From assembly GCF_019599145.1 (NCBI RefSeq), contig NZ_CP080647.1, forward strand, positions 9,548,001-9,612,000: a stretch of 64,000 bases of DNA. The letters run 5' to 3'. Of this stretch, positions 13,024-25,110 are shown one piece after another. The DNA comes from Streptomyces akebiae (GTDB lineage: Bacteria; Actinomycetota; Actinomycetes; Streptomycetales; Streptomycetaceae). Positions within the stretch are counted from its first letter, which is position 1. The number at the start of each line of letters is the position of its first letter. The notes beneath the pieces are model-generated. The model had not been told where the DNA came from and made no database searches. It saw only the letters and a list, made by a program, of their open reading frames with translations. Made by a program: the position numbers and the translations under genes.

Positions 13024-13551
13024 ATGCGATCACCACTGATGAGACGCTTCGGCCTCGGTGCCGTCCTGGCCCTCGCCCTCGCCGTGTTCGGCACGGCCCC
13101 CGGCGCGAGCGCGGCCGCCGCGGCACCCGCGGAGCTGACGTTCGCCACCGACAGCGCCACCACGACGCCCGGTGGCACGGTCAACCTGTCGATGACGATC
13201 ACGAACAACCACACCTACGACGTCTGGTTCGTCTACCAGACCATCCAACCCACCTGGCTGACCAACCAGCGCCCCGACCTGAAGTACTCCTTCATCGGCT
13301 GCAGCCTCGCCACGGCCGCCGGCGCCACCCCCTGCTCCGGGACCGGCCCCGCCGACCTCGGTACCAACTACGGCGCCACGGTCCCGCCCGGCCAGAGCCG
13401 TACCGTCACGCTGACGCTCCAGGTCGCCGGTGACTCCGGCTGCAACGGGAACATCGGCTTCTACTCGTACTACTACGCCGAGTTCAGCGACAGCACCAAC
13501 GTCAGTGGCGGTCCGGTGTTCACGCCCCAGACCCGGGTGCTCTGCGCCTGA
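13024..13551 (+). CDS. Small secreted protein, Ig-like/DUF11-like fold, function unknown
   Basis: The protein has 175 residues with a clear Sec signal peptide: basic start MRSPLMRR, hydrophobic GLGAVLALALAVFG and a probable cleavage after AGASA-type residues near position 30. The mature part (LTFATDSATTTPGGTVNLSMTITNN) looks like a single beta-sandwich domain of the DUF11/CARDB kind, with two likely disulphide pairs (Cys in FIGCSLATAAGATPC and in DSGCNG...VLCA). No Shine-Dalgarno is apparent and a -10-like TAGCCT precedes the ATG by 8 bases, suggesting a leaderless transcript. It has no catalytic motif; an extracellular matrix or binding role is only a guess. It stands alone between a relic and the polysaccharide cluster. 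Confidence 0.75.
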   Translation: MRSPLMRRFGLGAVLALALAVFGTAPGASAAAAAPAELTFATDSATTTPGGTVNLSMTITNNHTYDVWFVYQTIQPTWLTNQRPDLKYSFIGCSLATAAGATPCSGTGPADLGTNYGATVPPGQSRTVTLTLQVAGDSGCNGNIGFYSYYYAEFSDSTNVSGGPVFTPQTRVLCA

Positions 13552-13680
13552 CGGCCCGGCGACGAGGTGGGCGGTCGTGACGGGAGTGACCTGAAATGAT
13601 CTGCGATCGGGCTTCCGTCATGGTCTGAACCACTGGCGAACGACCGGGCGGGCCCGATCGGTCCGCCGACACGTCCCGCG

Positions 13681-13762: not shown

Positions 13763-13780
13763 TGTCCGCCCAGTTGGACA
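13763..13780. promoter_or_regulatory. TGTCC-N8-GGACA inverted repeat upstream of the polysaccharide cluster
   Basis: Perfect 5-base arms separated by 8 bases sit in the A/T-rich patch about 180 bases before the deacetylase ATG. The size and placement suit a dimeric regulator. No matching regulator gene is next to it, so the binding factor is unknown. Confidence 0.3.
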
Positions 13781-13960
13781 CCTGCGCTTTTCCGTCATGT
13801 TTCGCAGCATGACCACGAAAGCCACACACAGACACCACTATGTGACGCGACGGATGCGTCGACGACCGGGTTCTGAGGGGGAACGCCGGCGTCACGCAAG
13901 GGGGTGCGTCCGCTCCAGGAGAGGCGTGCTCACCCCTGCCCGGGGAGGGGACTTCACCGC

Positions 13961-16105
13961 ATGAAGCGGACTTTACGCACCACCGTGCTCACGGTGGGCG
14001 CGCTCATCGCCGCGCTCGGCCTGCCGGCCGGACCGGTCCACGCCGACGACACCACGCCCCGCGTCGATCTGCGGGTCCTGGTGGTCAGCGACGGTGGCCC
14101 GTCCACCGACGCGATAGCCGCCGAACTCACCACCGCCGGAACGCCGTACACCGAGATCGACCTGACGAGCGCCGACCGGCCCGTGATCGACGCGGGTTTC
14201 CTCGCGGACACCGTCGACGGCCGCCCGCGCGCCAAGTACCAGGCGGTCGTGCTGCCCAACGACAACCCGTTCCCGGCCGGCTCGGCCGAGATGACGGCGC
14301 TCGCGGAGTACGAGCGGACGTACACGATCCCCCAGGTCGACGCCTACACCTACGCGCGTCCAGAAGCCGGTTTGCAGTACCCGGTGTACGGCGGCTACTC
14401 CGGCAGCCTCGACGGCGCCGAGGCCCGGGTGACCGACGCCGGGAAGGCGGGCCCCTTCGGGTACCTCGACGGCGCGGTGCCCTTCGAGGACAACGACCCC
14501 GCCATCGGCGAGAGTTACGCCTACCTGTCGAGGCCCGTCGCGGGAGCCGACTTCACCCCCTACGTCGACGCGGCCGTCCCCGGCGGGTCCACGCGCGGCA
14601 CACTGGTCGGCGAGTACCGGCACGACGGGCGGCGCGAACTCGTCGTCACCTTCGTCTACAACCGCTACCAGCAGCAGTTCCGGCTGCTGGCCCGCGGCAT
14701 CGTCGCCTGGATGACCGGCGGGGTGCACCTGGGCGCCACGCGCAACTACTTCGCCGTGCACGTCGACGACGTGTTCGCCGCCGACGACCGCTGGAACACC
14801 GAGCTCAACTGCACCCCCGGCGACGTCGACTGCGCCGACCCGAACATCGAGCCCGACCCCATCCGCATGACCCCGGCCGACGTCGACCACGCCACCGCCT
14901 GGCAGACCGACAAGGGCTTCACCCTCGACCTCGCCTACAACGGCGCCGGCAGCGTCGACCACCGCGAGGACAACAACGGCGACGACGCCCTCACCGACAG
15001 GTTCATCGCGGAGCGCGACCGCTTCCGCTGGATCAACCACACCTACTCTCACCCCTTCCTCGGCTGTGTCCAGGACACCAGCGTGGTCCCCTGGAGATGC
15101 GCGACCGACGCCGACGGCTCCACCCGATGGGTGAGCCGCGACGACATCTCCGACGAGATCGCCACCAACCGCGTCTGGGGCCGGACGGCCGGACTGCCCC
15201 TGGACGACGGCGAGTTGGTCACCGGTGAACACTCCGGCATGAAGGTGCTGCCGCAACAGCCCGAGGACAACCCCAACCTGGCGCTCGCCCTCGACGACAA
15301 CGACATCACCTGGCTCGGCTCCGACAACTCCCGCGAGCCCGCCCAGCGGCAGGTCGGCCCCGCCACGACCGTGCCCCGCCACCCGATGAACGTCTTCTAC
15401 AACGCGGGCCGGGCGGCCGAACAGGTCGACGAGTACAACTGGATCTACACCAGCCGCGCCCAGGGCGGCAGCGGCATCTGCGAGGACAACCCCGCCACCA
15501 CCACCTGCCTCACCGCGCCGCTCGACACGGCCACCGGGTACGAGGACGTCATCGTGCCGCTGGAGAAGCGGATAGCCCTCGGCCACGTCCTCGCGGGCGA
15601 CCCCAAGCCGCACTTCATCCACCAGTCGAACCTGGCCGAGGACCGCATCGCCTACCCGGTGCTCGACGGTGTCCTGGACGGCTACGCGGCCCTGTTCGCC
15701 GAGAACACCCCCGTGGTCAACCTGCGGATGAAGGACATCGGAGCCGAACTCCGCCGCAGGGCCCTGTGGCAGGCCGCCCTCCAGGCCGGCGAGGTCACCG
15801 CCCACCGCATCGGCGACACCGTCACCGTCGAGGCACCGGACGGCCTGGCGGTCACCGTCACCGCGCCCACCGGCACCACCCTGGCCGGCGGCGCCTTCGG
15901 CGACGCCTACGCGGGCGCGGTCTCCGGCTGGACACCCTCCACGGGCGCCCCCCTCGCCCTCGCCCTCCCCACGGCCGCCGGCCCCTCGGCCGCCGTCGCC
16001 GACGAGCCCGTCGAGACCACGGATCCCGCGCCGGACACCCGTGTCCCCGCAGGCGTGAGCGAGAGAGTGCCGTACACCCCGGACACCGACACCGCGGACG
16101 ACTGA
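13961..16105 (+). CDS. Secreted CE18/NodB-like polysaccharide deacetylase (Agd3-like)
   Basis: The protein has 714 residues. ATG 13961 follows GGGGAGGGG at good spacing; a longer reading adds no homology. A Sec signal peptide (MKRTLRTTVL then a hydrophobic core, cleavage near VHA-DD, residue 28) exports it. Residues ~35-250 form an N-terminal domain. The deacetylase part has a NodB-type metal triad: HVDDVF (H267, D269-D270) and HTYSHPF (H360, H364). Length, the long N-terminal domain and the HVDDVF/HTYSH pair recall fungal Agd3 (CE18), which deacetylates galactosaminogalactan, more than short CE4 enzymes. The tail (~640-714) is Pro/Thr/Asp-rich and has no anchor motif. As the first gene before a PelF-like GT and GH114/GH135 genes, it probably de-N-acetylates the exported polymer, making it cationic and adhesive. 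Family assignment is by recalled motif, not by search. Confidence 0.72.
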   Translation: MKRTLRTTVLTVGALIAALGLPAGPVHADDTTPRVDLRVLVVSDGGPSTDAIAAELTTAGTPYTEIDLTSADRPVIDAGFLADTVDGRPRAKYQAVVLPNDNPFPAGSAEMTALAEYERTYTIPQVDAYTYARPEAGLQYPVYGGYSGSLDGAEARVTDAGKAGPFGYLDGAVPFEDNDPAIGESYAYLSRPVAGADFTPYVDAAVPGGSTRGTLVGEYRHDGRRELVVTFVYNRYQQQFRLLARGIVAWMTGGVHLGATRNYFAVHVDDVFAADDRWNTELNCTPGDVDCADPNIEPDPIRMTPADVDHATAWQTDKGFTLDLAYNGAGSVDHREDNNGDDALTDRFIAERDRFRWINHTYSHPFLGCVQDTSVVPWRCATDADGSTRWVSRDDISDEIATNRVWGRTAGLPLDDGELVTGEHSGMKVLPQQPEDNPNLALALDDNDITWLGSDNSREPAQRQVGPATTVPRHPMNVFYNAGRAAEQVDEYNWIYTSRAQGGSGICEDNPATTTCLTAPLDTATGYEDVIVPLEKRIALGHVLAGDPKPHFIHQSNLAEDRIAYPVLDGVLDGYAALFAENTPVVNLRMKDIGAELRRRALWQAALQAGEVTAHRIGDTVTVEAPDGLAVTVTAPTGTTLAGGAFGDAYAGAVSGWTPSTGAPLALALPTAAGPSAAVADEPVETTDPAPDTRVPAGVSERVPYTPDTDTADD

Positions 16106-16215
16106 CACCGCGGACAACTGACCTGCGGCACCCGCCCATCGAGCCGTCCCGGACGCGTCACCCGCGGCCGGGACCGGCAGGGAACCACCCCACACCACGG
16201 CAGTGGAGCACACCG

Positions 16216-17724
16216 ATGCCCGTTCCCCACGACGCGCGCCGACTCGGCGCGACGCGCGTCACCCTCCTCACCGAAGGCACCTATCCCCACAGTCACGGCG
16301 GCGTCAGCGTCTGGTGCGACCAACTCGTCCAGGGCATGCCGGACCTCGACTTCGACGTCATCGCCGTCACCGGCACCGGACGCGAACCCCTCGCCTGGGA
16401 CGTGCCCGCCCACGTCCGCCGTGTGCTGTCCGTCCCCATGTGGGGCGACCCGCCCGAGGGCCGCGCGCCCCGGGGCCGCGCCCGTCACCGACTCGCCACA
16501 GCCTACGAGCGGTTCCTCACCGCCCTCCTCGACCCAAAAGCCGAGGACGGCTTCGCGCCCGCCCTGTACGAGCTGGCCCGGGCCGCGGCGGACGGCACAC
16601 TCAGCCCCTTCCTGCGCTCGGACCGGGCGATCGCCCAACTGGCCGCCGTCTGGAACCGCCCCGGCCTCGCCGTCCGCGAGGCCCGGCCCACCCTGCACGA
16701 CGCGCTCACCGCGACCTCCCTGCTCGAACACGCCCTGCGCCCGCTCGCCGCGCCCTCTCCCGAGACCGGCGTCGCGCACGCGGTCAGCGGCGGCGTCGCC
16801 GTCCTCCCGGGCCTCGCCGCCCTCGAACGGCACGGCGTCCCCCTGCTGCTCACCGAACACGGCGTCTATCTGCGCGAGCGCTACCTCGGCTACCGCACCG
16901 CCCCCTACCGCTGGCCCGTCAAGGCGGTCGTCCTCGGCTTCTTCCGCCTCCTCGCCGAGGAGACCTACCGCCGGGCCGCCCTGATCACCCCAGGCAACCG
17001 CTACAACCGGCTCTGGGAGGAACAGGGCGGCGCCGACCCCGAGTCCATCCGTACCGTCTACAACGGCGTCGACCCCGCCGCGTTCCCGCCCGCCGGCCCC
17101 GAACCGGAGACGCTCACCCTCAGCTGGGCGGGCCGCGTCGACCCCATCAAGGACCTGGAGACCCTCATCCGGGCGTTCGCCCTCGTCAGGGCCGAACTAC
17201 CGGACACACGGCTGCGGTTGTTCGGCGGGACACCGCGAGGCGGCGAGGCCTACCGCGAGCGCTGCGAGGCCCTGGCCGCGCAACTGGGTCACGGCGACGC
17301 CGTCACCTTCGAGGGCCGGGTCGACGACATCAAGGACGCCTACGCGGCCGGCAACGTCGTGATGCTCTCCAGCATCAGCGAGGGCTTCCCGTTCACCCTC
17401 ATCGAGGCCATGTCGTGCGGGCGTGCCACCGTCTCCACCGATGTGGGGGGTGTGCGCGAGGCCGTCGGCGACACGGGGCTCGTGGTGCCGCCGCGCGACC
17501 CGGAGGCGATGGCGCGGGCCGCGCTGGAACTGCTGGGCGACCCGGCGCGCCGCCGGGCGATGGGGGAGGCGGCCAGGCTCCGGGTGATCGAACAGTTCAC
17601 CCTCCGCCAGACCATCGACACCTTCCGCTCCATCTACCTCGAACTGCCCACCCGGGCAGGGCGGTCGAGGACCGTCGAGATCCCGGCGCGGGTGCCCGCG
17701 ACCATCAGCACGGTGGCCGGATGA
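16216..17724 (+). CDS. PelF-like GT4 glycosyltransferase
   Basis: The protein has 502 residues; ATG 16216 is preceded by GGAG eight bases upstream. The N-terminus carries the PelF/DUF3492 opening TEGTYPHSHGGVSVWCD (residues 19-35). A GT4 Rossmann domain follows with TVYNGVDPAAF, WAGRVDPIKDLETLIRAF and the nucleotide-sugar-binding Glu motif SEGFPFTLIEAMSCG (around residue 388). No signal peptide or membrane span is seen, so it is a cytoplasmic retaining transferase. PelF polymerises N-acetylgalactosamine-rich Pel polysaccharide from UDP-sugars in Gram-negatives; GH114 and GH135 neighbours here point to the same kind of alpha-1,4-linked GalNAc polymer. Its stop overlaps the start of the membrane protein gene (ATGA), implying a synthase-transporter pair. 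Confidence 0.85.
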   Translation: MPVPHDARRLGATRVTLLTEGTYPHSHGGVSVWCDQLVQGMPDLDFDVIAVTGTGREPLAWDVPAHVRRVLSVPMWGDPPEGRAPRGRARHRLATAYERFLTALLDPKAEDGFAPALYELARAAADGTLSPFLRSDRAIAQLAAVWNRPGLAVREARPTLHDALTATSLLEHALRPLAAPSPETGVAHAVSGGVAVLPGLAALERHGVPLLLTEHGVYLRERYLGYRTAPYRWPVKAVVLGFFRLLAEETYRRAALITPGNRYNRLWEEQGGADPESIRTVYNGVDPAAFPPAGPEPETLTLSWAGRVDPIKDLETLIRAFALVRAELPDTRLRLFGGTPRGGEAYRERCEALAAQLGHGDAVTFEGRVDDIKDAYAAGNVVMLSSISEGFPFTLIEAMSCGRATVSTDVGGVREAVGDTGLVVPPRDPEAMARAALELLGDPARRRAMGEAARLRVIEQFTLRQTIDTFRSIYLELPTRAGRSRTVEIPARVPATISTVAG

Positions 17725-19139
17725 GCGGCCCCCTGTCACTCGAACCCGGCGGCGTCGAACAGGACACCCTGGCCATCCGGCTGGCCGACCGGCGCCGCCC
17801 GCGCCGCCGCCCCAGCTGGGCCCTCGGCGACGACACGACCCTCACCATCCGGCTCCCGCACCAGGGCCCGGACGAGGAGGCCGTGAGCGAACTCGCCGCC
17901 GAACTCGCCGACCGCGTCGGCCCGGCCGTCCACCCCTACGAAGTGGCCGCCCTGCTGGAGGCGGAGGGCCTGTCCGCCTCCCTCATCAAGGAACGCTACG
18001 GCCACCCGAACCTCTTCTCGCTGGCCTCGGCCCTGTACGAACGGGTGCCGAGGACGTTCCCCGAACCCGCCCCGACTGCCGACCCCTGGCGCCCGGACAC
18101 CGTGCGCTGCCTGTTGCGAGGCGTCCTCTTCGCCCTCCCCGGCCTCGCCTATCTGCTGACCGCCCCGCTGTGGAACCCCGGCGCGCACGCCCCGGCCCTC
18201 ATCGTGGCCGGCCTCGTCTCCTGGGCCTGGGGCCAGGCCCTCGGCCACCGCGCCCATCTGCGGATGGCGACCGGGCCGCGCGAAGCGGGCCGTACGCTCC
18301 TGACCGGCGCCCCCGCCGGGGCGGTCGTCGCCACGGCGATCGCGGCACTGCCCGCCGACGGCGGCCCGGTGACCCTGGTGGCGGCCGCCCAGTCCGCCTA
18401 CCTGGGGGCGGCGGGCGTCCTGCTGGTCCTCGGCCGGGAGCGCCTCCTGCTCGCCGCGCTCAGCCCGTTGATCGCCGGAGCCGTCGTCCTGCCCTGGTGG
18501 GAACCGGGCCCATGGGCGCGCGCCGGACTGCCCCTCCTCGCCCTGCTGGCCACCCTCGCCGTCACCGGCCGGACCCTGCGTGCCACCCTCGCCGCCCCGG
18601 CCGTCCCGGACGCCCGCCGCCCCCGCCTGCGGTGGTCCCTGCCGTACGGCCTGTTCGGCCTCGCCGCCGGCGTGCTGGTGCTGCTGGAGGGCCGGCAGGA
18701 GCCGTACGCGGTGATCGTGCTGACGGTGAGCATGGGCCCGGCGGAATGGCTGCTCTACCGCTACCGCGGGCTGTCCGTCGCCGCGCTGCGCGCCGTCGCG
18801 ACCCCCGCCGGGTTCCTGCTGCGCTCGGCCGGGATCCTCGCCCTCTGCCTGCTCGCCTACCTGCTGCCGCTGCTGCCCGCGGCCCTGCTCACCGACGCCG
18901 CCCCCGCCCCGCTGCTGCTGCTCGCCGCCGTCCTGTGGACCGCGCTGCTGCTGCAGGCCTTCGGGGCGGCCTGGCCGTCGGCCGTGATCTGTCTCGCGGC
19001 GGCGGGCGGCGCCGGGGCGGTCACCCTGCTGCGCCTGCCACCGGGCGACCTGGCGCTGCCCGTCGGCTGCGCCGCCGCCGCGCTCTGTCTGTCGGCGTGC
19101 GCGCTGCGGCTGCTCGGCCGGCCCGCACCGCACGCCTGA
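17721..19139 (+). CDS. Polytopic membrane protein, probable polysaccharide export partner of the GT4
   Basis: The protein has 472 residues, and its ATG overlaps the GT4 stop. The first ~110 residues are soluble: a short N-terminal segment with ADRRRPRRRP and a helical region (VSELAAELADRVG, EVAALLEAEGLSASLIKERYG). After residue ~125 come about 10-12 hydrophobic spans, beginning VLFALPGLAYLLTAPLW and ending LPVGCAAAALCLSACALRLLG. It occupies the position of PelG, the membrane transporter paired with PelF, but no PelG/MATE signature was recognised, so homology is not claimed. In fungal Gtb3 a GT4-type domain and a membrane-spanning region are in one polypeptide; this tightly coupled pair could be the split equivalent. 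Function as transporter or GT anchor is inferred. Confidence 0.75.
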   Translation: MSGPLSLEPGGVEQDTLAIRLADRRRPRRRPSWALGDDTTLTIRLPHQGPDEEAVSELAAELADRVGPAVHPYEVAALLEAEGLSASLIKERYGHPNLFSLASALYERVPRTFPEPAPTADPWRPDTVRCLLRGVLFALPGLAYLLTAPLWNPGAHAPALIVAGLVSWAWGQALGHRAHLRMATGPREAGRTLLTGAPAGAVVATAIAALPADGGPVTLVAAAQSAYLGAAGVLLVLGRERLLLAALSPLIAGAVVLPWWEPGPWARAGLPLLALLATLAVTGRTLRATLAAPAVPDARRPRLRWSLPYGLFGLAAGVLVLLEGRQEPYAVIVLTVSMGPAEWLLYRYRGLSVAALRAVATPAGFLLRSAGILALCLLAYLLPLLPAALLTDAAPAPLLLLAAVLWTALLLQAFGAAWPSAVICLAAAGGAGAVTLLRLPPGDLALPVGCAAAALCLSACALRLLGRPAPHA

Positions 19140-19216
19140 GCCCCGTGCTCACCCCGACCACCGCACACCCCCACGCGCCACCCCCCACACCACCGACCGA
19201 CCGGAAGGACACCCAG

Positions 19217-20218
19217 TTGACCTCCGCACCGCTCGCCGCCGTCACCGGAGCCGAGGGCTTCATCGGCTCCCACCTGACCGAGGCGCTCGTCGCCGCCGGA
19301 CACCGGGTCCGGGCCATGGCCCAGTACAACTCCTTCTCCTCCTACGGCTGGCTGGAGACCCTGCACCCCGACGTCCTCGACCAGGTCGAGATCGTCCTCG
19401 GCGACGTCCGCGACCCCGGCTCGGTCCGCGGCCTCCTCGACGGCGCCGACACCGCCTACCACCTGGCCGCCCTCATCGCGATCCCGTACTCCTACCAGGC
19501 ACCGCACAGTTACGTGGACACCAACGTCACCGGCACCCTCAACGTCCTGGAAGCCGTCCGAGCCCTCGGCACACCCCGCCTGGTCCACACCTCCACCAGC
19601 GAGACCTACGGCACCGCGCGGACCGTGCCGATCACCGAGGACCACCCCATCAACACCCAGTCGCCGTACGCCGCCTCGAAGGCCGGCGGGGACCGGCTCG
19701 CCGACAGCTACCACGCGAGCTTCGACACCCCCGTCGTGACCCTGCGGCCGTTCAACACCTTCGGGCCCCGCCAGTCGATGCGCGCGGTGATCCCCACGGT
19801 GATCGGCCAGGTCGCGGCGGGGCAGCGCACCATCACCCTCGGCGATCTGCGTCCCACCCGGGACTTCACCTTCGTCAAGGACACCGCGCAGGCGTTCCTG
19901 ACCGTCGGTACCGCGCCCGCCGAGCAGGTCGTGGGGCGCACCTTCAACGCCGGCACCGGGGGCGAGATCTCCATCGGCGACCTCGTCGCGCTGATCGGCA
20001 AGGTCATGGACAGCGAACTCGACGTCCGCGAGGACGAGGCACGCATCCGGCCCGTGAACTCCGAGGTGATGCGGCTCGTCGCGGACGCGAGCCGGCTGAC
20101 CGCCGCCACCGGCTGGCAGCCCGCCCACACCCTGGAGGAAGGCCTCGCGCACACCGTGGAGTTCTTCCGCGACCCGGCGAACCTCGCCCGCTACAAGACC
20201 GGCATCTACAACATCTGA
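19217..20218 (+). CDS. SDR sugar-nucleotide 4,6-dehydratase/epimerase (LegB-like)
   Basis: The protein has 333 residues, with a TTG start at 19217 preceded by GGAAGGAC 7 bases upstream; readings beginning earlier run through the membrane gene in another frame. The extended-SDR fold is shown by TGAEGFIGSH near the N-terminus (NAD binding) and YAASK (catalytic Tyr/Lys). YNSFSSYGWLE and STSETYG resemble NAD-dependent 4,6-dehydratases of the LegB type, but UDP-sugar 4-epimerases share most features. In this cluster the expected task is to supply an activated sugar, for instance UDP-GalNAc by 4-epimerisation of UDP-GlcNAc, as Uge3 does in fungi. The Ser-Glu pair in STSET leans towards dehydratase-type chemistry, so the exact reaction is open. 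Confidence 0.8.
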   Translation: MTSAPLAAVTGAEGFIGSHLTEALVAAGHRVRAMAQYNSFSSYGWLETLHPDVLDQVEIVLGDVRDPGSVRGLLDGADTAYHLAALIAIPYSYQAPHSYVDTNVTGTLNVLEAVRALGTPRLVHTSTSETYGTARTVPITEDHPINTQSPYAASKAGGDRLADSYHASFDTPVVTLRPFNTFGPRQSMRAVIPTVIGQVAAGQRTITLGDLRPTRDFTFVKDTAQAFLTVGTAPAEQVVGRTFNAGTGGEISIGDLVALIGKVMDSELDVREDEARIRPVNSEVMRLVADASRLTAATGWQPAHTLEEGLAHTVEFFRDPANLARYKTGIYNI

Positions 20219-20310
20219 CTCCCGTCGGGCCGCGTCGGCGGAGCACGACCCCGTGCGTCGCCGCGCATCCCCGAAGTCCACCAGTCCACGAAGCACGAAG
20301 GAGGAGCACC

Positions 20311-21024
20311 ATGCACGCAGTGATCCTGGCGGGAGGCAAGGGCGTCCGGCTGCGGCCCTACACGACCGCGCTGCCGAAGCCGCTCGTCCCCATCGGCGAC
20401 CAGCACGCCATCCTGGAGATCGTGCTGCGCCAGCTCTCCGCGGCCGGCTTCACCCACGTCACCCTCGCCATCGGCCACCTCGGCGAGATCATCCGTGCCT
20501 ACGTCGGCGACGGCTCCCAGTGGGCCCTGACCGTCGACTACGCCCCCGAGGAGAGCCCTCTCGGAACCATGGGCCCGCTGCTCAACCTGCGCGACCGGCT
20601 GCCCGAGTCCTTCCTCGTGATGAACGGCGACGTCCTCACCGACCTCGACTACGCCGATGTCCTGTGCCGGCACCGGGAGTCCGGGGCGCCGCTCACCATC
20701 GCCACCTACGCCCGCAAGGTCCACATCGACTTCGGTGTCCTGACCACCGACGACAGCAAGGTCGTCGCCTTCACCGAGAAGCCGAGCATGGACTACCGCG
20801 TCTCCATGGGTGTCTACGGCGTGTCCCGCTCCACCCTGGAGGGTTACACCCCCGGACTGCCCCTCGGTTTCGACGAGTTGGTCCTCGACCTGATAAGGGC
20901 TCAGAACCAGCCGCACGCCTACGACTTCGACGGGTACTGGCTGGACATAGGCCGTCCGGACGACTACGACCGGGCCAACGCCGAGTTCACCACCCGCAAG
21001 TCGCTTCTGCTCAAGGGAGCCTGA
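20311..21024 (+). CDS. Sugar-1-phosphate nucleotidyltransferase
   Basis: The protein has 237 residues; ATG 20311 sits behind GAAGGAGGAG, a strong ribosome site. It has the GT-A-like nucleotidyltransferase signature AGGKGVRLRPYT with PKPLVPIGD just after, VMNGDVLTDLDY for metal binding and FTEKPSMDY. The length equals a catalytic core without a left-handed beta-helix domain, so it is not a GlmU-type bifunctional enzyme. It would condense NTP with a hexose-1-phosphate to give an NDP-sugar for the SDR enzymes on either side; the base and sugar cannot be read from sequence. A gap of 7 bases leads to the next gene. Confidence 0.85.
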   Translation: MHAVILAGGKGVRLRPYTTALPKPLVPIGDQHAILEIVLRQLSAAGFTHVTLAIGHLGEIIRAYVGDGSQWALTVDYAPEESPLGTMGPLLNLRDRLPESFLVMNGDVLTDLDYADVLCRHRESGAPLTIATYARKVHIDFGVLTTDDSKVVAFTEKPSMDYRVSMGVYGVSRSTLEGYTPGLPLGFDELVLDLIRAQNQPHAYDFDGYWLDIGRPDDYDRANAEFTTRKSLLLKGA

Positions 21025-21031
21025 GCACCAC

Positions 21032-22111
21032 ATGCGCATTCTCGTCCTGGGTTTCACCGGATATCTGGGCACCCATGTCGTCGAGGGGCTGCGCGCCCTG
21101 CCGGGCGCGCTGGTCCTCGGCGCCGGCCGCGCGCCCACCGCCGACCACGCCGTCGACCTCGCCACCGTCCGCCCCGCGGAACTGGCGAAGACCCTGGCGT
21201 CGGCCGCGCCCGACACCGTGGTCAACTGTGCGGGCGCGACCGGCGGTGACCCCGTCACCCTCGCCGAGGTCAACGCCCGCGGCCCCGCCGTCCTGTGCGC
21301 GGCGCTCCGCGAGGCCGCCCCCGGCGCACGGCTGGTGCACCTGGGCTCGGCCGCCGAGTACGGGCCCGGCGTCCCGGACGTCCGGGTGACGGAGTCGGCG
21401 GCCACCCGTCCGCTCGCCCCCTACGGCGCGACCAAGCTCGCGGGAACGGTCGCCGTCACCACGTCCGGCCTGGACGCGGTGGTCCTGCGGGTCGGCAACC
21501 CGGTCGGCCCCGGCGCGCCGCCCACCAGCCTCCCCGGCCGCATCGCCACCCTGCTCCGCACCGCCGGGCCCGGCCCCGAGGCCGTGGTCCCGCTCGGCGC
21601 CCTCTCCGCGTACCGCGACTTCGTCGACGTCCGCGACGTCACCCGAGCGGTCGTCCTCGCGGCCACGGCCCCCGGCCCCCTGCCGCCCGTCCTCAACATC
21701 GCCGGCGGCCGCGCCGTCCCGGTCCGTGAGGTGGTGCGGTGCCTGGCCGACAAGGCCGGCTTCCGAGGGCGGATCATGGAGAACGCGACGGGGCCGAGCG
21801 CGTCGGCGGGCGCGGGCGGGAGCACGGGACGGGGCGCGGGGGCGGTCGGCGCGGCTCACGCGGCCGGGTCGGTTCGGTCGGCGGACGTGTCGTGGCAGTG
21901 CTCCGACATCACCGCCGCCGAGACGGCCCTCGGCTGGCGACCGGCCCACACCCTGGACGACGCGCTCACCGCACTGTGGGAGAGCGGCGGAGCCGCCGGG
22001 GAACGCGGAGCCGCCGGGGAACGGGACGGCGCCGCGGAACACAGGACCGTCGGGGGACGGGACGGCGTCGGGGAACGCGGGGGCGGCGAGAAGGGTGTCC
22101 GTACGCCGTGA
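21032..22111 (+). CDS. NAD-dependent epimerase/dehydratase family protein (SDR)
   Basis: The protein has 359 residues starting at ATG 21032. The N-terminal GFTGYLGTH is the dinucleotide-binding Gly motif, and the catalytic Tyr/Lys pair appears as APYGATK. PVLNIAGGRAVPVREVVRCL and WRPAHTLDDALTALW match the C-terminal substrate domain of sugar SDRs. An insert rich in Gly/Ala/Ser near residues 255-285 and a repetitive Gly-Glu-Arg tail (last ~35 residues) are not family features and look disordered. It is the second SDR in the cluster and overlaps the next gene by GTGA. It may reduce or epimerise a nucleotide-linked keto-sugar made by the first SDR; the substrate is not determinable. Confidence 0.8.
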   Translation: MRILVLGFTGYLGTHVVEGLRALPGALVLGAGRAPTADHAVDLATVRPAELAKTLASAAPDTVVNCAGATGGDPVTLAEVNARGPAVLCAALREAAPGARLVHLGSAAEYGPGVPDVRVTESAATRPLAPYGATKLAGTVAVTTSGLDAVVLRVGNPVGPGAPPTSLPGRIATLLRTAGPGPEAVVPLGALSAYRDFVDVRDVTRAVVLAATAPGPLPPVLNIAGGRAVPVREVVRCLADKAGFRGRIMENATGPSASAGAGGSTGRGAGAVGAAHAAGSVRSADVSWQCSDITAAETALGWRPAHTLDDALTALWESGGAAGERGAAGERDGAAEHRTVGGRDGVGERGGGEKGVRTP

Positions 22112-22770
22112 GTCTGCTGATCCCGCTGTACGTCCACCCGGCCGAGGACCCGGGCGCCTGGCTCCGCCTGATCAGGGCGGCGCCCCGTACCTACGCCGTC
22201 GTCCTCAACCCCGCGAACGGCCCCGGCGACGTCCCCGACCCCGCGTTCACCGCGGCGGCCGGGGCGCTGCGCGCGGCCGGGGCCCGGCTGCTCGGCTATG
22301 TCGACACCGACTACGGGGTGCGCGACCGCGCCGAGATCGCCGACGACGTACGCCGTCACCAGGAGTGGTACGCGGCCGACGGCTGCTTCCTCGACCAGGT
22401 GACGGCCACCCCGGACGGCCTGCCCGCCTGCCGCAGGCTCGTCCGGGCCGTCCGCCGGCTCGGCGCCGCCACCGTCGTCCTCAACCCCGGCGTCCACCCG
22501 GCACCGGGGTACGCCCGCCTCGCCGATCTGACCGTCACCTTCGAGGGCCACTGGTCGACGTACGTGTCGGCGTTCAGCCGACCGGCCTGGGTCGCCCGCC
22601 ACCCGCCCGAGCGCCTCTGCCACCTCGTCTACGGCGTCCCCGAGGCACTCGTACCGCTCGCCGTGCGCACCGCGCACGACCGGGGCGCCGCCGTCTGCGG
22701 CCCGGTGACCGGCGAACCGCCCAACCCCTGGGCCCAGTTGACGCCCGCGCTCACCGGGACGGACCGATGA
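22108..22770 (+). CDS. Spherulin-4-like (GH135 / Sph3-type) protein
   Basis: The protein has 220 residues, with the GTG start overlapping the SDR stop. The sequence begins SLLIPLYVHPAEDPGAW and continues with VVLNPANGPG, LLGYVDTDYGVR, GCFLDQV and VVLNPGVHP, the signature strands of the spherulation-specific family 4 fold (a TIM barrel). In Aspergillus the homologous Sph3 (GH135) hydrolyses galactosaminogalactan and is needed for its synthesis; acidic residues in VDTDYG and FLDQV are in the expected catalytic strands. No signal peptide or transmembrane segment is present at this start, so it may act in the cytoplasm, be exported otherwise, or work at the synthase. It overlaps the GH114 gene by ATGA, so two glycosidases of related specificity are made together. 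Confidence 0.8.
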   Translation: MSLLIPLYVHPAEDPGAWLRLIRAAPRTYAVVLNPANGPGDVPDPAFTAAAGALRAAGARLLGYVDTDYGVRDRAEIADDVRRHQEWYAADGCFLDQVTATPDGLPACRRLVRAVRRLGAATVVLNPGVHPAPGYARLADLTVTFEGHWSTYVSAFSRPAWVARHPPERLCHLVYGVPEALVPLAVRTAHDRGAAVCGPVTGEPPNPWAQLTPALTGTDR

Positions 22771-23579
22771 GGAGAAGGAGACCGGCGTTCGGGCATGTGG
22801 CGCTGCTGGCCGCCCTCCTGGCCTCGACGCTGGCGGGCTGCGGCGGCGACCCCGACCCGGATTCCGGCTCCACGTCCGGGCCGCGGTGGAGACCCCGGCC
22901 CGGTCTCGCCTGGCAGTGGCAGCTGGACGGAAGGGTCGACCCCTCCGCGGACGTGCCCGTCTACGACATCGACGGGTTCGAGAACTCCGCGAAGGACGTG
23001 GCCCGGCTGCACCGGGACGGCCGCAAGGTCATCTGCTACATCAACGTCGGCGCCTGGGAGGACTTCCGGCCCGACAAGGACTCCTTCCCCCGCTCGCTGC
23101 TCGGCGAGGAGAACGGCTGGGCGGGCGAACGCTGGCTGGACATAAGGCAGTTGGACGTCCTGCGGCCCCTCATGGAACGCCGCTTCGACATGTGCCGCGA
23201 CAAGGGCTTCGACGCGGTGGAGCCCGACCTGGTGGAGGGCTACGGCGACGACACCGGCTTCCCGCTCACCGCGCGGGACCAGCTCGCCTACAACCGCATG
23301 ATCGCGGACATCGCCCACGAACGCGGCCTGGCGGTGGGCCTGAAGAACGACCTGTCCCAGATACCCGAACTGCTGGCCGACTTCGACTTCGCCGTCAACG
23401 AGGAGTGCGCCCAGTACGACGAATGCGGGCGGCTCTCGCCCTTCGTCGAAGCAGGCAAGGCCGTGTTCCACGTGGAGTACACCGAACCCAGGAGCAGCTT
23501 CTGCGCGGAGTCCCGTCGGCTCGGGCTCTCGTCGATGGTCAAACGGCTGGAGCTGGGGGTGTGGCGGCAGCCATGCTGA
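22767..23579 (+). CDS. GH114 endo-alpha-1,4-polygalactosaminidase, lipoprotein
   Basis: The protein has 270 residues; its ATG overlaps the GH135 stop. The N-terminus is a lipoprotein signal (MRRRRP, hydrophobic stretch, lipobox LAGC with Cys25), so the enzyme is tethered outside the membrane. The GH114 domain shows VPVYDIDGFE, VICYINVGAWEDFRPD, FDAVEPDLVEGY and NEECAQYDEC, with the conserved Asp/Glu residues in the barrel strands. GH114 enzymes cut alpha-1,4-linked galactosamine polymers (Ega3 in Aspergillus, PelA hydrolase domain in Pseudomonas). As the last gene of the cluster it probably trims, releases or clears the secreted polymer. This is the most specific clue to the nature of the polysaccharide. 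Confidence 0.87.
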   Translation: MRRRRPAFGHVALLAALLASTLAGCGGDPDPDSGSTSGPRWRPRPGLAWQWQLDGRVDPSADVPVYDIDGFENSAKDVARLHRDGRKVICYINVGAWEDFRPDKDSFPRSLLGEENGWAGERWLDIRQLDVLRPLMERRFDMCRDKGFDAVEPDLVEGYGDDTGFPLTARDQLAYNRMIADIAHERGLAVGLKNDLSQIPELLADFDFAVNEECAQYDECGRLSPFVEAGKAVFHVEYTEPRSSFCAESRRLGLSSMVKRLELGVWRQPC

Positions 23580-23745
23580 GCGCGGAGGAGCCGGTGGCCG
23601 TGGGCGGCCCCGACTGGGCGGAGAAGGCACCCCGAGGACTTCCGGTTGCGTCTGCTCCATGTCTCCGCCGTCGACGAGGGCTCCGACACCCGCGACGAAC
23701 TCCTCACCCTGCGTGACCGTTGCCCGCCTCCGGCGGCTCCGCCAT
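23573..23745 (+). pseudogene. Possible universal stress protein (UspA) relic
   Basis: Just after the GH114 gene, EEPVAVGG...DWAEKAPRGLP in one frame and LRLLHVSAVDEGSDTRDELL in the next resemble the first ~70 residues of a Usp protein (EPVVVGVDGS...A.RGLPLRLLHVS). Dropping one G in CCGGTTGCG near 23,642 would join RGLP to LRLLHV. The ATP-binding C-terminal half is absent. The similarity is short, so this is a tentative remnant. Confidence 0.35.
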
Positions 23746-23880
23746 GTCCGCGACGCTGCGTCCTCATTCGCACACCCGTGCGTGACCTGGCGGTTTCCCT
23801 GGGAACAGAACCGCGCCCGGGCGGTCCCGTGCTCCTATGGTGGAGATCACAGGCAGGCGACGGACGCTGAGGCGGCGACC

Positions 23881-25110
23881 ATGGCGGAGACGGCGATCGA
23901 CTACGCGGCGGTGTTCCAGGCGCTGCCGGGCATGGTGGCGCTGCTGACACCCGAGCTGGTGTACGCGGACGCGAACGAGGAGTTTCTGCGGGTGTCGGGG
24001 CGCACCCGAGAGCAGGTCGTCGGCCGGTATCTCTTCGACGTGTTCCCCGACAACCCCGACGACCCGTCGGCGGACGGGATGCGGAATCTGGCGGCCTCCC
24101 TCGACCGTGTGGTGGAGAGCGGCGAGCGGGACGCGATGGCGTTGCAGCGCTTCGACGTGGAGTCCGCCGAGCGGCCTGGGGAGTGGGAGGAACGGTACTG
24201 GAGTCCGGTGAACGCGCCGATCCTCGGCACCGACGGGAAGGTGACGCTGCTGATCCACAGGGTGGAGGAGGTCACCGAGCTGATCCGCGCCCGCGAGCGC
24301 GCCCCGGGCGACCGGGCCCGGGTGCTGGAGGCCGAGCTCTACACCCGTGCCCGGGAGCTGCAGGAGGTCAACGAACGGCTGCGTGAGGCGCACGCCCACG
24401 AACGGGAGGTGGCGCTCGCCCTGCAGAAGGCGATGCTGCCCGCGCCCAACCCGGTCGGACACCATCGCGCGGCCGTCCGCTACCAGCCGGCGACGGACGC
24501 GCTGAACGTGTGCGGCGACTGGTACGACCTGGTCAGCCTGGCCGGCGCCGACCGCATCGGGGTCGCCGTCGGTGACGTGGTCGGGCACGGCCTGGCCGCG
24601 GCCGGCGTCATGGGCAAGCTCCGCAGCGCGCTGAGCGCCGCGTCCCTGGTGGCCGACGGTCCCGCCCAGGCACTGGACGCGCTCGGCCTGTACGCCCGCT
24701 CCGTCGACGGCGCCGAGAACACCACCGCCGTGCAGACCTGCGTCGACTGGGACACCCACACCATCACCTACAGCAGCGCCGGCCATCTGCCGCCGGCGGT
24801 GCTGTGCCGCGACGGCACGGTCGTCTTCCTCGACGGAGCCACCGATCCGCCGCTCGGCGCCCGTCCCGAGCACATCCCTCGCCCCGAGGCCACCGTCGAC
24901 TTCAGCGAGGGCGACACCCTGGTCCTCTACACGGACGGTCTGATCGAACGCCGTGACGAGGACATCGACGTCAGCCTTGGCCGCCTCGCCGAAGCGCTCA
25001 CCCGCCATCGCCGCTCCACCCCGGAGTTCCTCGCCGACGCCCTCCTCCTCGACCTCCTCCACCACGGCCGCGCCACCGACGACACGGCCCTCGTGATCGT
25101 CCGGCTGTGA
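23881..25110 (+). CDS. PAS - PP2C (SpoIIE-type) serine phosphatase
   Basis: The protein has 409 residues from ATG 23881 (GAGGCGG upstream). A PAS domain occupies residues ~8-125 (FQALPGMVALLTPELVYADANEEFLRVSGR and a VVGRYLFDVFPDN turn). A helical, probably coiled-coil linker (ARELQEVNERLREAHAHEREVALALQ) follows. The PP2C/SpoIIE domain covers ~195-409 with the metal-binding motifs CGDWYD, GDVVGHG, YTDGLIERRDE and TDDTAL. There is no HATPase or GAF domain. Such proteins dephosphorylate anti-anti-sigma factors in partner-switching circuits in response to a PAS-sensed signal; no sigma or anti-sigma gene is adjacent, so the partner is elsewhere. It is monocistronic and convergent with ligA. Confidence 0.88.
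   Translation: MAETAIDYAAVFQALPGMVALLTPELVYADANEEFLRVSGRTREQVVGRYLFDVFPDNPDDPSADGMRNLAASLDRVVESGERDAMALQRFDVESAERPGEWEERYWSPVNAPILGTDGKVTLLIHRVEEVTELIRARERAPGDRARVLEAELYTRARELQEVNERLREAHAHEREVALALQKAMLPAPNPVGHHRAAVRYQPATDALNVCGDWYDLVSLAGADRIGVAVGDVVGHGLAAAGVMGKLRSALSAASLVADGPAQALDALGLYARSVDGAENTTAVQTCVDWDTHTITYSSAGHLPPAVLCRDGTVVFLDGATDPPLGARPEHIPRPEATVDFSEGDTLVLYTDGLIERRDEDIDVSLGRLAEALTRHRRSTPEFLADALLLDLLHHGRATDDTALVIVRL

What the first reader, a model, noticed from the sequence alone, without database searches (positions are those of the whole stretch)
13961..23579. Bacterial counterpart of the fungal galactosaminogalactan cluster
Eight consecutive genes include a CE18/NodB-like secreted deacetylase, a PelF-like GT4, a coupled polytopic membrane protein, two SDR enzymes, a sugar nucleotidyltransferase, a GH135 (Sph3-type) protein and a GH114 (Ega3/PelA-type) lipoprotein. 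Known biology: Aspergillus makes galactosaminogalactan with Uge3, Gtb3, Agd3, Sph3 and Ega3. Each class is present here in one cluster, while standard Gram-negative pel genes (pelA-G with PelB/PelC/PelD/PelE) are not. Inference: Streptomyces makes a partly deacetylated alpha-1,4-GalNAc-rich exopolysaccharide, perhaps an adhesive sheath.
Basis: partly seen in the sequence, partly recalled or inferred. Interest (0 to 1): 0.88.

Follow-up and report, generated by a model that had tools for sequence, protein, structure and literature searches.

The report
Streptomyces GAG/Pel-like sticky-polysaccharide operon
A block of eight neighbouring genes in a Streptomyces chromosome looks like the bacterial version of the fungal galactosaminogalactan machinery, which builds, exports and partly deacetylates a sticky sugar polymer; relatives of it were already published in 2020, but this one also carries its own sugar-supply genes, which hint that its polymer may be built from a different sugar.

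Summary
The eight genes are real and at the stated coordinates. GH114 (Ega3-like), GH135/Spherulin-4 and PelF-like GT4 are clear. The deacetylase scores below the Pfam Agd3 threshold but keeps the CE18 catalytic motifs, and its best Foldseek match is Agd3. The membrane protein has a MATE/MOP-like fold without detectable PelG sequence similarity; true PelG fills that slot in two distant clusters. Of 297 family genomes, 154 carry the deacetylase; 54 of 80 named Streptomyces loci have all eight genes in order. The host genome has three such loci: A (window), B (CE18-GT4-TM-GH135-GH114) and C (GT4-TM-SDR2-GH135). SDR1 looks like a LegB-like 4,6-dehydratase, so the polymer may contain a 6-deoxyhexosamine instead of, or besides, GalNAc. 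GH135 shows no signal peptide. A secreted-protein gene and, in 31 of 81 loci, a DasR-like site precede the operon. Bacterial agd3 operons with GT, membrane protein, GH114 and Spherulin-4 were reported in 2020 (PMC7229062), so the headline is not new; the sugar-nucleotide module, paralogous loci and operator-like site are the additions.

The parts
13024..13551 (+).
   Evidence: tblastn: present in 74 of 80 named loci, same strand, about 300-650 bp upstream of the deacetylase; 1 of the 6 misses has only 563 bp upstream
13621..13632 (.). DasR-like (dre) palindrome TGGTCTGAACCA, 2 mismatches to the published core TGGTCTAGACCA
   Evidence: at most 2 mismatches in 31 of 81 upstream regions, versus 19 of 1620 mononucleotide shuffles and 20 of 1580 random places; all 30 named-locus sites lie 326-341 bp upstream
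13776..13960 (+). Conserved leader before the deacetylase start; possible GC-rich hairpin
   Evidence: conservation profile of 81 regions; covariation weak, -0.37; no Rfam match there
13961..16105 (+). Secreted Agd3-like (CE18-type) polysaccharide deacetylase, 714 aa
16216..17724 (+). PelF-like GT4 glycosyltransferase, 502 aa, cytoplasmic
   Evidence: NF038011 172.7 bits, cut-off 100
17721..19139 (+). Membrane protein, 472 aa: helical N-terminal domain (residues about 52-110) plus MATE/MOP-like transporter; start overlaps the GT4 end by 4 bp
   Evidence: AlphaFold2 mean pLDDT 81.6; Foldseek rows 1-39 all MATE, WzxE or MurJ
19217..20218 (+). SDR1: LegB-like NDP-sugar 4,6-dehydratase (predicted), TTG start
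20311..21024 (+). Sugar-1-phosphate nucleotidyltransferase, 237 aa, base specificity unknown
21032..22111 (+). SDR2: NDP-sugar 4-ketoreductase or 4-epimerase
   Evidence: best solved match 2pk3 (GDP-6-deoxy-lyxo-4-hexulose reductase) E 1.7e-30, next 6wjb E 1.1e-25
22108..22770 (+). GH135 / Spherulin-4 family protein, 220 aa, no signal peptide seen
   Evidence: Spherulin4 120.3 bits; 5c5g Sph3 E 2e-15; N-termini
22767..23579 (+). GH114 Ega3-like lipoprotein, 270 aa, lipobox LAGC by eye
   Evidence: 288.3 bits; Ega3 6oj1 E 1.6e-58

Best explanation
This is an operon for a Pel/GAG-class exopolysaccharide. The GT4 polymerises an alpha-linked N-acetylated hexosamine in the cytoplasm (inferred from PelF similarity). 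The MOP-like membrane protein carries the chain across the membrane, doing PelG's job with a different sequence (fold and position shown by computation, transport inferred). The secreted CE18-type enzyme removes acetyl groups and makes the chain cationic and sticky (motifs shown, activity inferred). The GH114 lipoprotein trims deacetylated stretches at the surface. GH135, with no signal peptide seen, probably cuts unexported acetylated chain inside the cell (inferred). The nucleotidyltransferase, SDR1 and SDR2 make a dedicated nucleotide sugar for it. Expression in many species is probably under DasR, the amino-sugar regulator (inferred from the operator-like site). The likely role is hyphal adhesion or aggregation.
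For: Family matches; Agd3 as best Foldseek hit of the deacetylase, E 4.8e-12; catalytic motifs DD in 94 of 96, HxxxH 96 of 96, Arg 93 of 96, His 96 of 96 matching Agd3 D377/D378, H510/H514, R613, H668 (PMC7229062, passages); GH114 close to Ega3; MOP-like fold; true PelG sits between GT4 and the CE18-like gene in two distant actinobacterial genomes, G307 and G336; conserved operon; a reduced 5-gene version exists; DasR-like site.
Against: No polymer or activity is known for this locus. The deacetylase is below the Pfam Agd3 cut-off, its sequence profile finds no solved structure, and its AlphaFold model is poor (pLDDT 55.9; TM-score 0.18-0.19 and rmsd 16.6 to Agd3). For the membrane protein only 2 of 256 Foldseek matches reach E 0.001 and all TM-scores of rows 1-39 are under 0.5 (0.27-0.46 by query length). 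The PelG profile comparison is negative, though it had only 3 PelG sequences. 50 of 81 loci do not show a DasR-like site at 2 mismatches or fewer, and whether the host has a dasR gene was not checked.
Confidence: 0.72

Rival explanations
1. Plain GAG/Pel: the polymer is only GalNAc/GalN (with or without Gal). SDR2 or a housekeeping GalE makes UDP-GalNAc, and SDR1 plus the nucleotidyltransferase only decorate the chain or serve something else. (This shares the machine of the best explanation and differs in the sugar.)
For: GH135 and GH114 families act on GalNAc/GalN chains (PMC12054363, passages); the six type B loci examined lack SDR1, NTP and SDR2, as do four loci in genomes of another genus without a strong LegB-like gene; three GalE genes lie elsewhere in the genome; SDR2 matches 6wjb, which I recall as the UDP-GlcNAc 4-epimerase PelX, E 1.1e-25.
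Against: All 16 type A loci and all 68 named loci that do not run into a contig end keep SDR1-NTP-SDR2 in the middle of the operon; SDR1 is the best conserved of the eight in those 16 loci (77-95% identity, against 78-90% for NTP, the next).
Confidence: 0.4
2. A wall-anchored secondary cell-wall glycopolymer rather than a free or loosely bound exopolysaccharide.
For: MOP flippases also move lipid-linked wall precursors; WzxE and MurJ are among the fold matches.
Against: No recognisable wall ligase or anchoring gene among the eight; one GT only; the secreted deacetylase and hydrolases match EPS systems.
Confidence: 0.12
3. A scavenging cluster that degrades galactosamine polymers of fungi or bacteria.
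For: Two glycoside hydrolase families, a secreted deacetylase and an amino-sugar-type operator.
Against: A polymerising GT4 coupled to a MOP-like transporter, nucleotide-sugar synthesis genes, a GH135 without signal peptide, and no sugar uptake or catabolic gene among the eight.
Confidence: 0.05

Closest known systems
Bacterial agd3 operons, including Actinobacteria (Bamford et al. 2020, PMC7229062)
   Same: Agd3 homologue with a cytoplasmic GT, a multi-spanning membrane protein, GH114 and sometimes Spherulin-4; the window locus belongs to this group
   Different: The text seen (section 13 whole, other passages) does not mention the sugar-nucleotide genes, paralogous loci or a DasR-like site; figures and supplements could not be seen
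Fungal galactosaminogalactan cluster (Uge3, Gtb3, Agd3, Sph3, Ega3)
   Same: Counterparts of Agd3, Sph3, Ega3 and of the synthase
   Different: No clear Uge3-type epimerase; adds a 4,6-dehydratase-like SDR, a nucleotidyltransferase and a second SDR; GT and membrane protein are separate; GH135 shows no signal peptide
Gram-positive pel operon pelDEADAFG (Bacillus cereus)
   Same: PelF-type GT, a multi-spanning exporter-like protein, extracellular deacetylase
   Different: No PelD or PelE among the eight genes (not searched elsewhere); PelADA is CE26, not CE18 (PMC13254593, passages); the membrane protein is not PelG by sequence
MatAB and CslA/GlxA polymers of Streptomyces
   Same: Adhesive extracellular glycans of the same genus (PMC12173525, passages)
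   Different: Those are PNAG and a cellulose-like glycan, made by other genes

Membership tests
CE18 (Agd3) | Catalytic motifs CM1 DD, CM2 HxxxH, CM3 Arg, CM4 His | tested here: met
   Pattern search: 94, 96, 93 and 96 of 96 orthologues; D269 D270 H360 H364 R473 H554 invariant in 16 aligned sequences
CE18 (Agd3) | Sequence score over the Pfam Agd3_CE gathering cut-off | tested here: not met
   18.9 bits against 27.6; 8 of 16 members match at E 0.01, best E 1.6e-4. So I call it Agd3-like, CE18-type, not a proven CE18 member
CE18 (Agd3) | Agd3 fold (CBM87, CE and C-terminal domains) | tested here: inconclusive
   6nwz Agd3 is the best Foldseek match, E 4.8e-12, but the model has pLDDT 55.9; CBM87 matched in 1 of 16
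GH114 (Ega3) | Family score and catalytic Asp/Glu | tested here: met
   288.3 bits; Ega3 E 1.6e-58; D189 and E247 of Ega3 fall, with one constant offset of 41 counted by hand, on conserved D and E of the alignment
GH135 (Sph3) | Family score and catalytic Asp/Glu columns | tested here: met
   120.3 bits; Asp and Glu aligned with Sph3 residues; loose Asp and Glu patterns present in 85 of 85
PelF GT4 | Score over the NCBIfam PelF cut-off | tested here: met
   172.7 bits against 100
PelG | Match to PF16933 or profile similarity | tested here: not met
   No PF16933 match in the host genome; hhalign probability 0.1 with only 3 PelG sequences
MOP superfamily | Fold | tested here: met
   Rows 1-39 of the Foldseek list are all MATE, WzxE or MurJ, best E 5.7e-4, but every TM-score there is under 0.5
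GAG cluster: Uge3 / GalE | UDP-sugar 4-epimerase encoded in the cluster | tested here: inconclusive
   SDR1 136 bits against 262.3, not GalE; SDR2 between reductase and epimerase
LegB 4,6-dehydratase | Score over the TIGR04180 cut-off | tested here: not met
   451.7 against 475; 0 of 81 family genomes exceed it; hence LegB-like only
GAG/Pel polymer | Partly deacetylated alpha-1,4-GalNAc polymer produced | not testable with these tools
   Needs chemistry

The most novel reading that the evidence does not exclude
Type A loci make a new member of the Pel/GAG polymer class whose repeating sugar is a 6-deoxyhexosamine (for example 6-deoxy-GalNAc, D-FucNAc), activated by the nucleotidyltransferase, dehydrated by SDR1 and reduced by SDR2, polymerised by a PelF-like GT4 and exported by a non-PelG MOP protein. 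The same cells keep a second, shorter cluster (type B) for the ordinary GalNAc/GalN polymer, with the type A polymer under amino-sugar (DasR) control.
Probability: 0.33. Interest if true: 0.7.

Novelty: new variant of a known kind. Interest (0 to 1): 0.5.

Why it matters
About half of the sampled family genomes carry the deacetylase (154 of 297), yet among the papers listed by the searches made here (top rows only) I saw no functional study of such a locus in Streptomyces. If it works as proposed, Streptomyces hyphae have an adhesive polymer system beside MatAB and CslA, shared in design with filamentous fungi, with possible links to pellet formation. A 6-deoxy version would show that the PelF/Agd3/Ega3 chemistry extends beyond GalNAc. 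The shared gene set bears on the published idea that the fungal cluster came from bacteria.

Tried and rejected
AlphaFold of the deacetylase gave a poor model, used only for its top Foldseek match. Sequence profiles of the deacetylase and of the membrane protein against solved structures found nothing. SDR1 as GalE/Uge3 was rejected on score and motif, although its nearest solved sequences are a mix of epimerases and dehydratases with almost equal scores. A riboswitch in the leader: no Rfam match there; two sub-threshold matches elsewhere in the stretch taken as chance; fold z-score -0.95, covariation weak; left open. Consensus sigma-70 promoters and terminators: nothing above chance. The downstream PAS/SpoIIE phosphatase is not a conserved neighbour (8 of 80 loci). 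The 16-base dre consensus gave 0 hits in the window at up to 3 mismatches (the window site has 4); only the 12-base core (2 mismatches) shows it, so the claim rests on position and on the relatives.

Selection effects: the 80 named loci are the best 80 of 493 confirmed relatives, so they lean to close relatives of the window. The loci were chosen by me. Signal peptides were judged by eye and by a crude hydrophobicity scan that does not separate the groups fully (GH135 maximum 1.94, deacetylase minimum 1.69, medians 1.27 and 2.32), not by a dedicated predictor. The shuffles keep base composition only. In the GT4 tree the support of the type A clade itself was not printed, and the loci were not in it.
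Full report
What is there. The window lies in a 10.55-Mb genome (G000) whose nearest named relatives are Streptomyces; the closest deacetylase found is from S. caniscabiei, 95% identity. Eight genes run on the + strand from 13961 to 23579, with 4-bp overlaps GT4/TM, SDR2/GH135 and GH135/GH114, a 7-bp gap NTP/SDR2, and gaps of 77-110 bp elsewhere. They code for a secreted deacetylase, a PelF-like GT4, a polytopic membrane protein, an SDR (SDR1), a sugar nucleotidyltransferase (NTP), a second SDR (SDR2), a GH135 protein and a GH114 lipoprotein.

How strong each assignment is. GH114: Pfam 288 bits, Ega3 at E 1.6e-58, catalytic Asp and Glu kept. GH135: Pfam 120 bits, Sph3 at E 2e-15. GT4: over the PelF cut-off. 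Deacetylase: Pfam Agd3_CE 18.9 bits, below its cut-off of 27.6, and no solved structure is found by a sequence profile. But DD, HxxxH, Arg and His patterns occur in 94, 96, 93 and 96 of 96 orthologues, the same residues as Agd3 D377/D378, H510/H514, R613, H668 (PMC7229062, passages), and Foldseek puts Agd3 (6nwz) first at E 4.8e-12 and human heparan-sulfate N-deacetylase in rows 2-5, even though the model is poor (pLDDT 55.9) and the overall TM-score is only 0.18-0.19. Bamford et al. give 13-19% identity for bacterial Agd3 homologues, so the weak sequence signal is expected.

The membrane protein. It has no Pfam or NCBIfam match and no meaningful PDB sequence match (best E 0.093; none for the profile). 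A confident AlphaFold2 model (mean pLDDT 81.6) shows a helical N-terminal domain and a transporter whose Foldseek rows 1-39 are all MATE transporters, WzxE or MurJ; best E 5.7e-4, 2 of 256 matches at E 0.001 or better, TM-scores by query length 0.27-0.46. That is the MOP fold, to which PelG belongs (recalled). PelG itself (PF16933) gives no match in the host genome and matches 6 of 296 sampled genomes of the phylum, 3 over its cut-off. In two of those three, G307 and G336, PelG lies between the GT4 and the CE18-like gene, with GH135 on the other strand nearby; in the third, G573, it lies beside a GT4 and no CE18 was seen in the stretch taken. So the Streptomyces protein holds PelG's place with a different sequence; hhalign finds no relation (only three PelG sequences).

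Distribution and gene order. The deacetylase matches in 154 of 297 family genomes but only 13 of 396 genomes over the phylum, 6 of the 13 in the same genus. Of 80 named loci (the best 80 of 493 confirmed relatives), 54 have all eight genes in order, 14 have the first seven, and 12 run into contig ends. Of 16 loci that I picked from the list (at least L037 and L039 are the same loci as L078 and L098), all 16 have CE18-GT4-TM-SDR1-NTP-SDR2 in order, 15 of 16 GH135 and 10 of 16 GH114 within the stretch taken. One of them, L038, has SDR1 split by a frame change, not followed up; the same genome, G237, has a second type A locus, L044.

Three loci in one genome. The host also has a five-gene locus without SDR1, NTP and SDR2 (type B, G000:C1 about 7.575-7.582 Mb; deacetylase 59-60% identical) and a locus GT4-TM-SDR2-GH135 without a recognised deacetylase or GH114 (type C, about 3.504-3.509 Mb). 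Type B was also seen in L160-L164, two of them without GH114. B-like loci without the three sugar genes occur in a third genus (L217, L218, L220, L224; L220 and L224 without GH135; L219 without a deacetylase match in the stretch), in genomes that, G050 (L219) aside, have no strong LegB-like gene. In a GT4 tree of 40 sequences A and B are sisters (support 0.93), with C (0.95) and L158 (1.0) outside. L158 and C both carry SDR2, and L158 also NTP, so the sugar genes look old and type B looks reduced (inference). L158, from another family of the same class, has CE18, GT4, TM, NTP and SDR2 followed by what reads as a nucleotide-sugar 6-dehydrogenase and another SDR (the names of the last two are by eye). 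If so, the sugar chemistry varies between lineages around a constant polymer machine.

The sugar supply. The fungal cluster has a UDP-sugar 4-epimerase, Uge3. SDR1 is not GalE-like (136 bits against 262.3); three clear GalE genes lie elsewhere in the genome. Its best family is LegB, 451.7 bits against a cut-off of 475. In 81 family genomes, 30 have a match of 444-458 bits, a further 11 matches lie at 417-435 bits in places I did not examine, and 0 of 81 genomes exceed the cut-off. C. jejuni LegB is described as a GDP-GlcNAc 4,6-dehydratase (PMC7439481, passages). All 88 SDR1 orthologues read TSTSETYG, with Glu where the epimerase-type 6dnt reads SSSSAVYG; the rule that Thr-x-Glu marks 4,6-dehydratases, and also UDP-glucuronate decarboxylases, is recalled. 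SDR2 reads GSA[AG]EYG in 85 of 85 and is nearest to the 4-keto-6-deoxy reductase 2pk3, then to 6wjb, which I recall as the UDP-GlcNAc 4-epimerase PelX. Together, NTP-SDR1-SDR2 would give an NDP-6-deoxyhexose(NAc). That points away from a pure GalNAc polymer, but does not exclude one.

Working model. GT4 polymerises inside; the MOP-like protein exports; the deacetylase makes the chain cationic outside; GH114 trims. Export and deacetylation may be physically coupled, as predicted for PelADA-PelG in B. cereus (PMC13254593, passages). GH135 shows no signal peptide in the 18 entries examined by eye (host A, host B twice, and 15 other loci), unlike an extracellular hydrolase, so I place it in the cytoplasm; this is an inference. 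In Neurospora, loss of the GAG synthase lowered mycelial strength and affected adhesion (PMC11356417, passages).

Regulation and a ninth gene. A 175-aa secreted protein gene (13024-13551) precedes the operon in 74 of 80 named loci and in 7 of the 16 picked loci (L036-L042); it was not found in the other 9 (L043-L051) or in the six type B loci (type C loci were not tested). Between it and the deacetylase lies TGGTCTGAACCA. The published DasR consensus is A(G/C)TGGTCTAGACCA(G/C)T (PMC4398421, passages). Sites with at most 2 mismatches to the 12-base core occur in 31 of 81 regions, against 19 of 1620 shuffled and 20 of 1580 random stretches, and all 30 of the named loci's sites lie 326-341 bp upstream with many palindrome variants. 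The related loci are not independent, 50 of 81 lack it at that threshold, only 2 of 10 more distant type A loci (L042, L045) show one, and six type B, four B-like and two type C loci show none. The exact pattern GGTCTNNACCA occurs 124 times in the genome against 61 for its reversed control, so a single site proves little; the shared position is the evidence.

What is known. Bamford et al. 2020 (PMC7229062; section 13 whole, other passages) found Agd3 homologues in 45 bacterial species, 30 of the 35 in their tree in or near carbohydrate operons, all the operons identified with a cytoplasmic GT and a multi-spanning membrane protein, GH114 'highly consistent', and Spherulin-4 in some Actinobacteria operons. 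They noted galactosamine polymers and an endogalactosaminidase in Streptomyces and supported transfer of the cluster from bacteria to fungi. The headline of the finding is therefore published. I could not see their figures or supplements, so I cannot say whether the sugar-nucleotide genes were drawn there. My literature searches cover open-licence PMC papers only, and of long lists I saw the top rows.

Verdict. Observation confirmed; interpretation partly supported; a new variant of a known kind, with the polymer's sugar the open question.

Noticed in passing
window 13776-13960: About 185 bp of conserved leader before the deacetylase start, with a possible GC-rich hairpin (GGGGGTG...GCTCC/GGAGC...CACCCC by eye); no Rfam family, weak covariation.
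   Followed up: partly
L158 (G493:C1:2828001-2848000): A related cluster in another family carries NTP and SDR2 with what reads as a nucleotide-sugar 6-dehydrogenase, another SDR with TSEVY and a possible GH114-like TIM barrel, suggesting a different sugar with the same machine (names by eye).
   Followed up: partly
L154 (G582:C5:84000-99608): Deacetylase matches split over several frames next to GT4, TM and GH114: a decayed gene or assembly errors. Described only.
   Followed up: no
L216 (G048:C4:336001-354000): A type A locus without a deacetylase or GH114 match, in a genome that keeps a CE18 in its type B locus.
   Followed up: partly
L044 and L038 (both G237): One genome with two type A loci, each with the sugar-nucleotide genes; the second is only about 60% identical in the deacetylase.
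   Followed up: no
G000:C1:4789073-4789714 (L033, L035): A third GH114 gene, 36% identical to the window's, with no other cluster gene found in the 13 kb taken around it.
   Followed up: partly
family genomes, for example G033:C1:430926-431810: A second class of LegB-like genes (417-435 bits, 11 matches in 11 genomes); context not examined.
   Followed up: no
G000:C2: The second contig has many open frames of about 2,000-9,900 aa whose parts weakly ring for the GalE model, as modular polyketide synthase reductase domains might (my reading).
   Followed up: no
window 23659-25110: PAS plus SpoIIE phosphatase gene directly downstream; matched in only 8 of 80 loci, so not part of the conserved operon.
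   Followed up: yes
window 17874-18050 (membrane protein residues about 52-110): Conserved helical N-terminal domain of unknown function before the transporter part, also visible in L158 and in the type C locus; it could be a regulatory or GT-docking domain.
   Followed up: no
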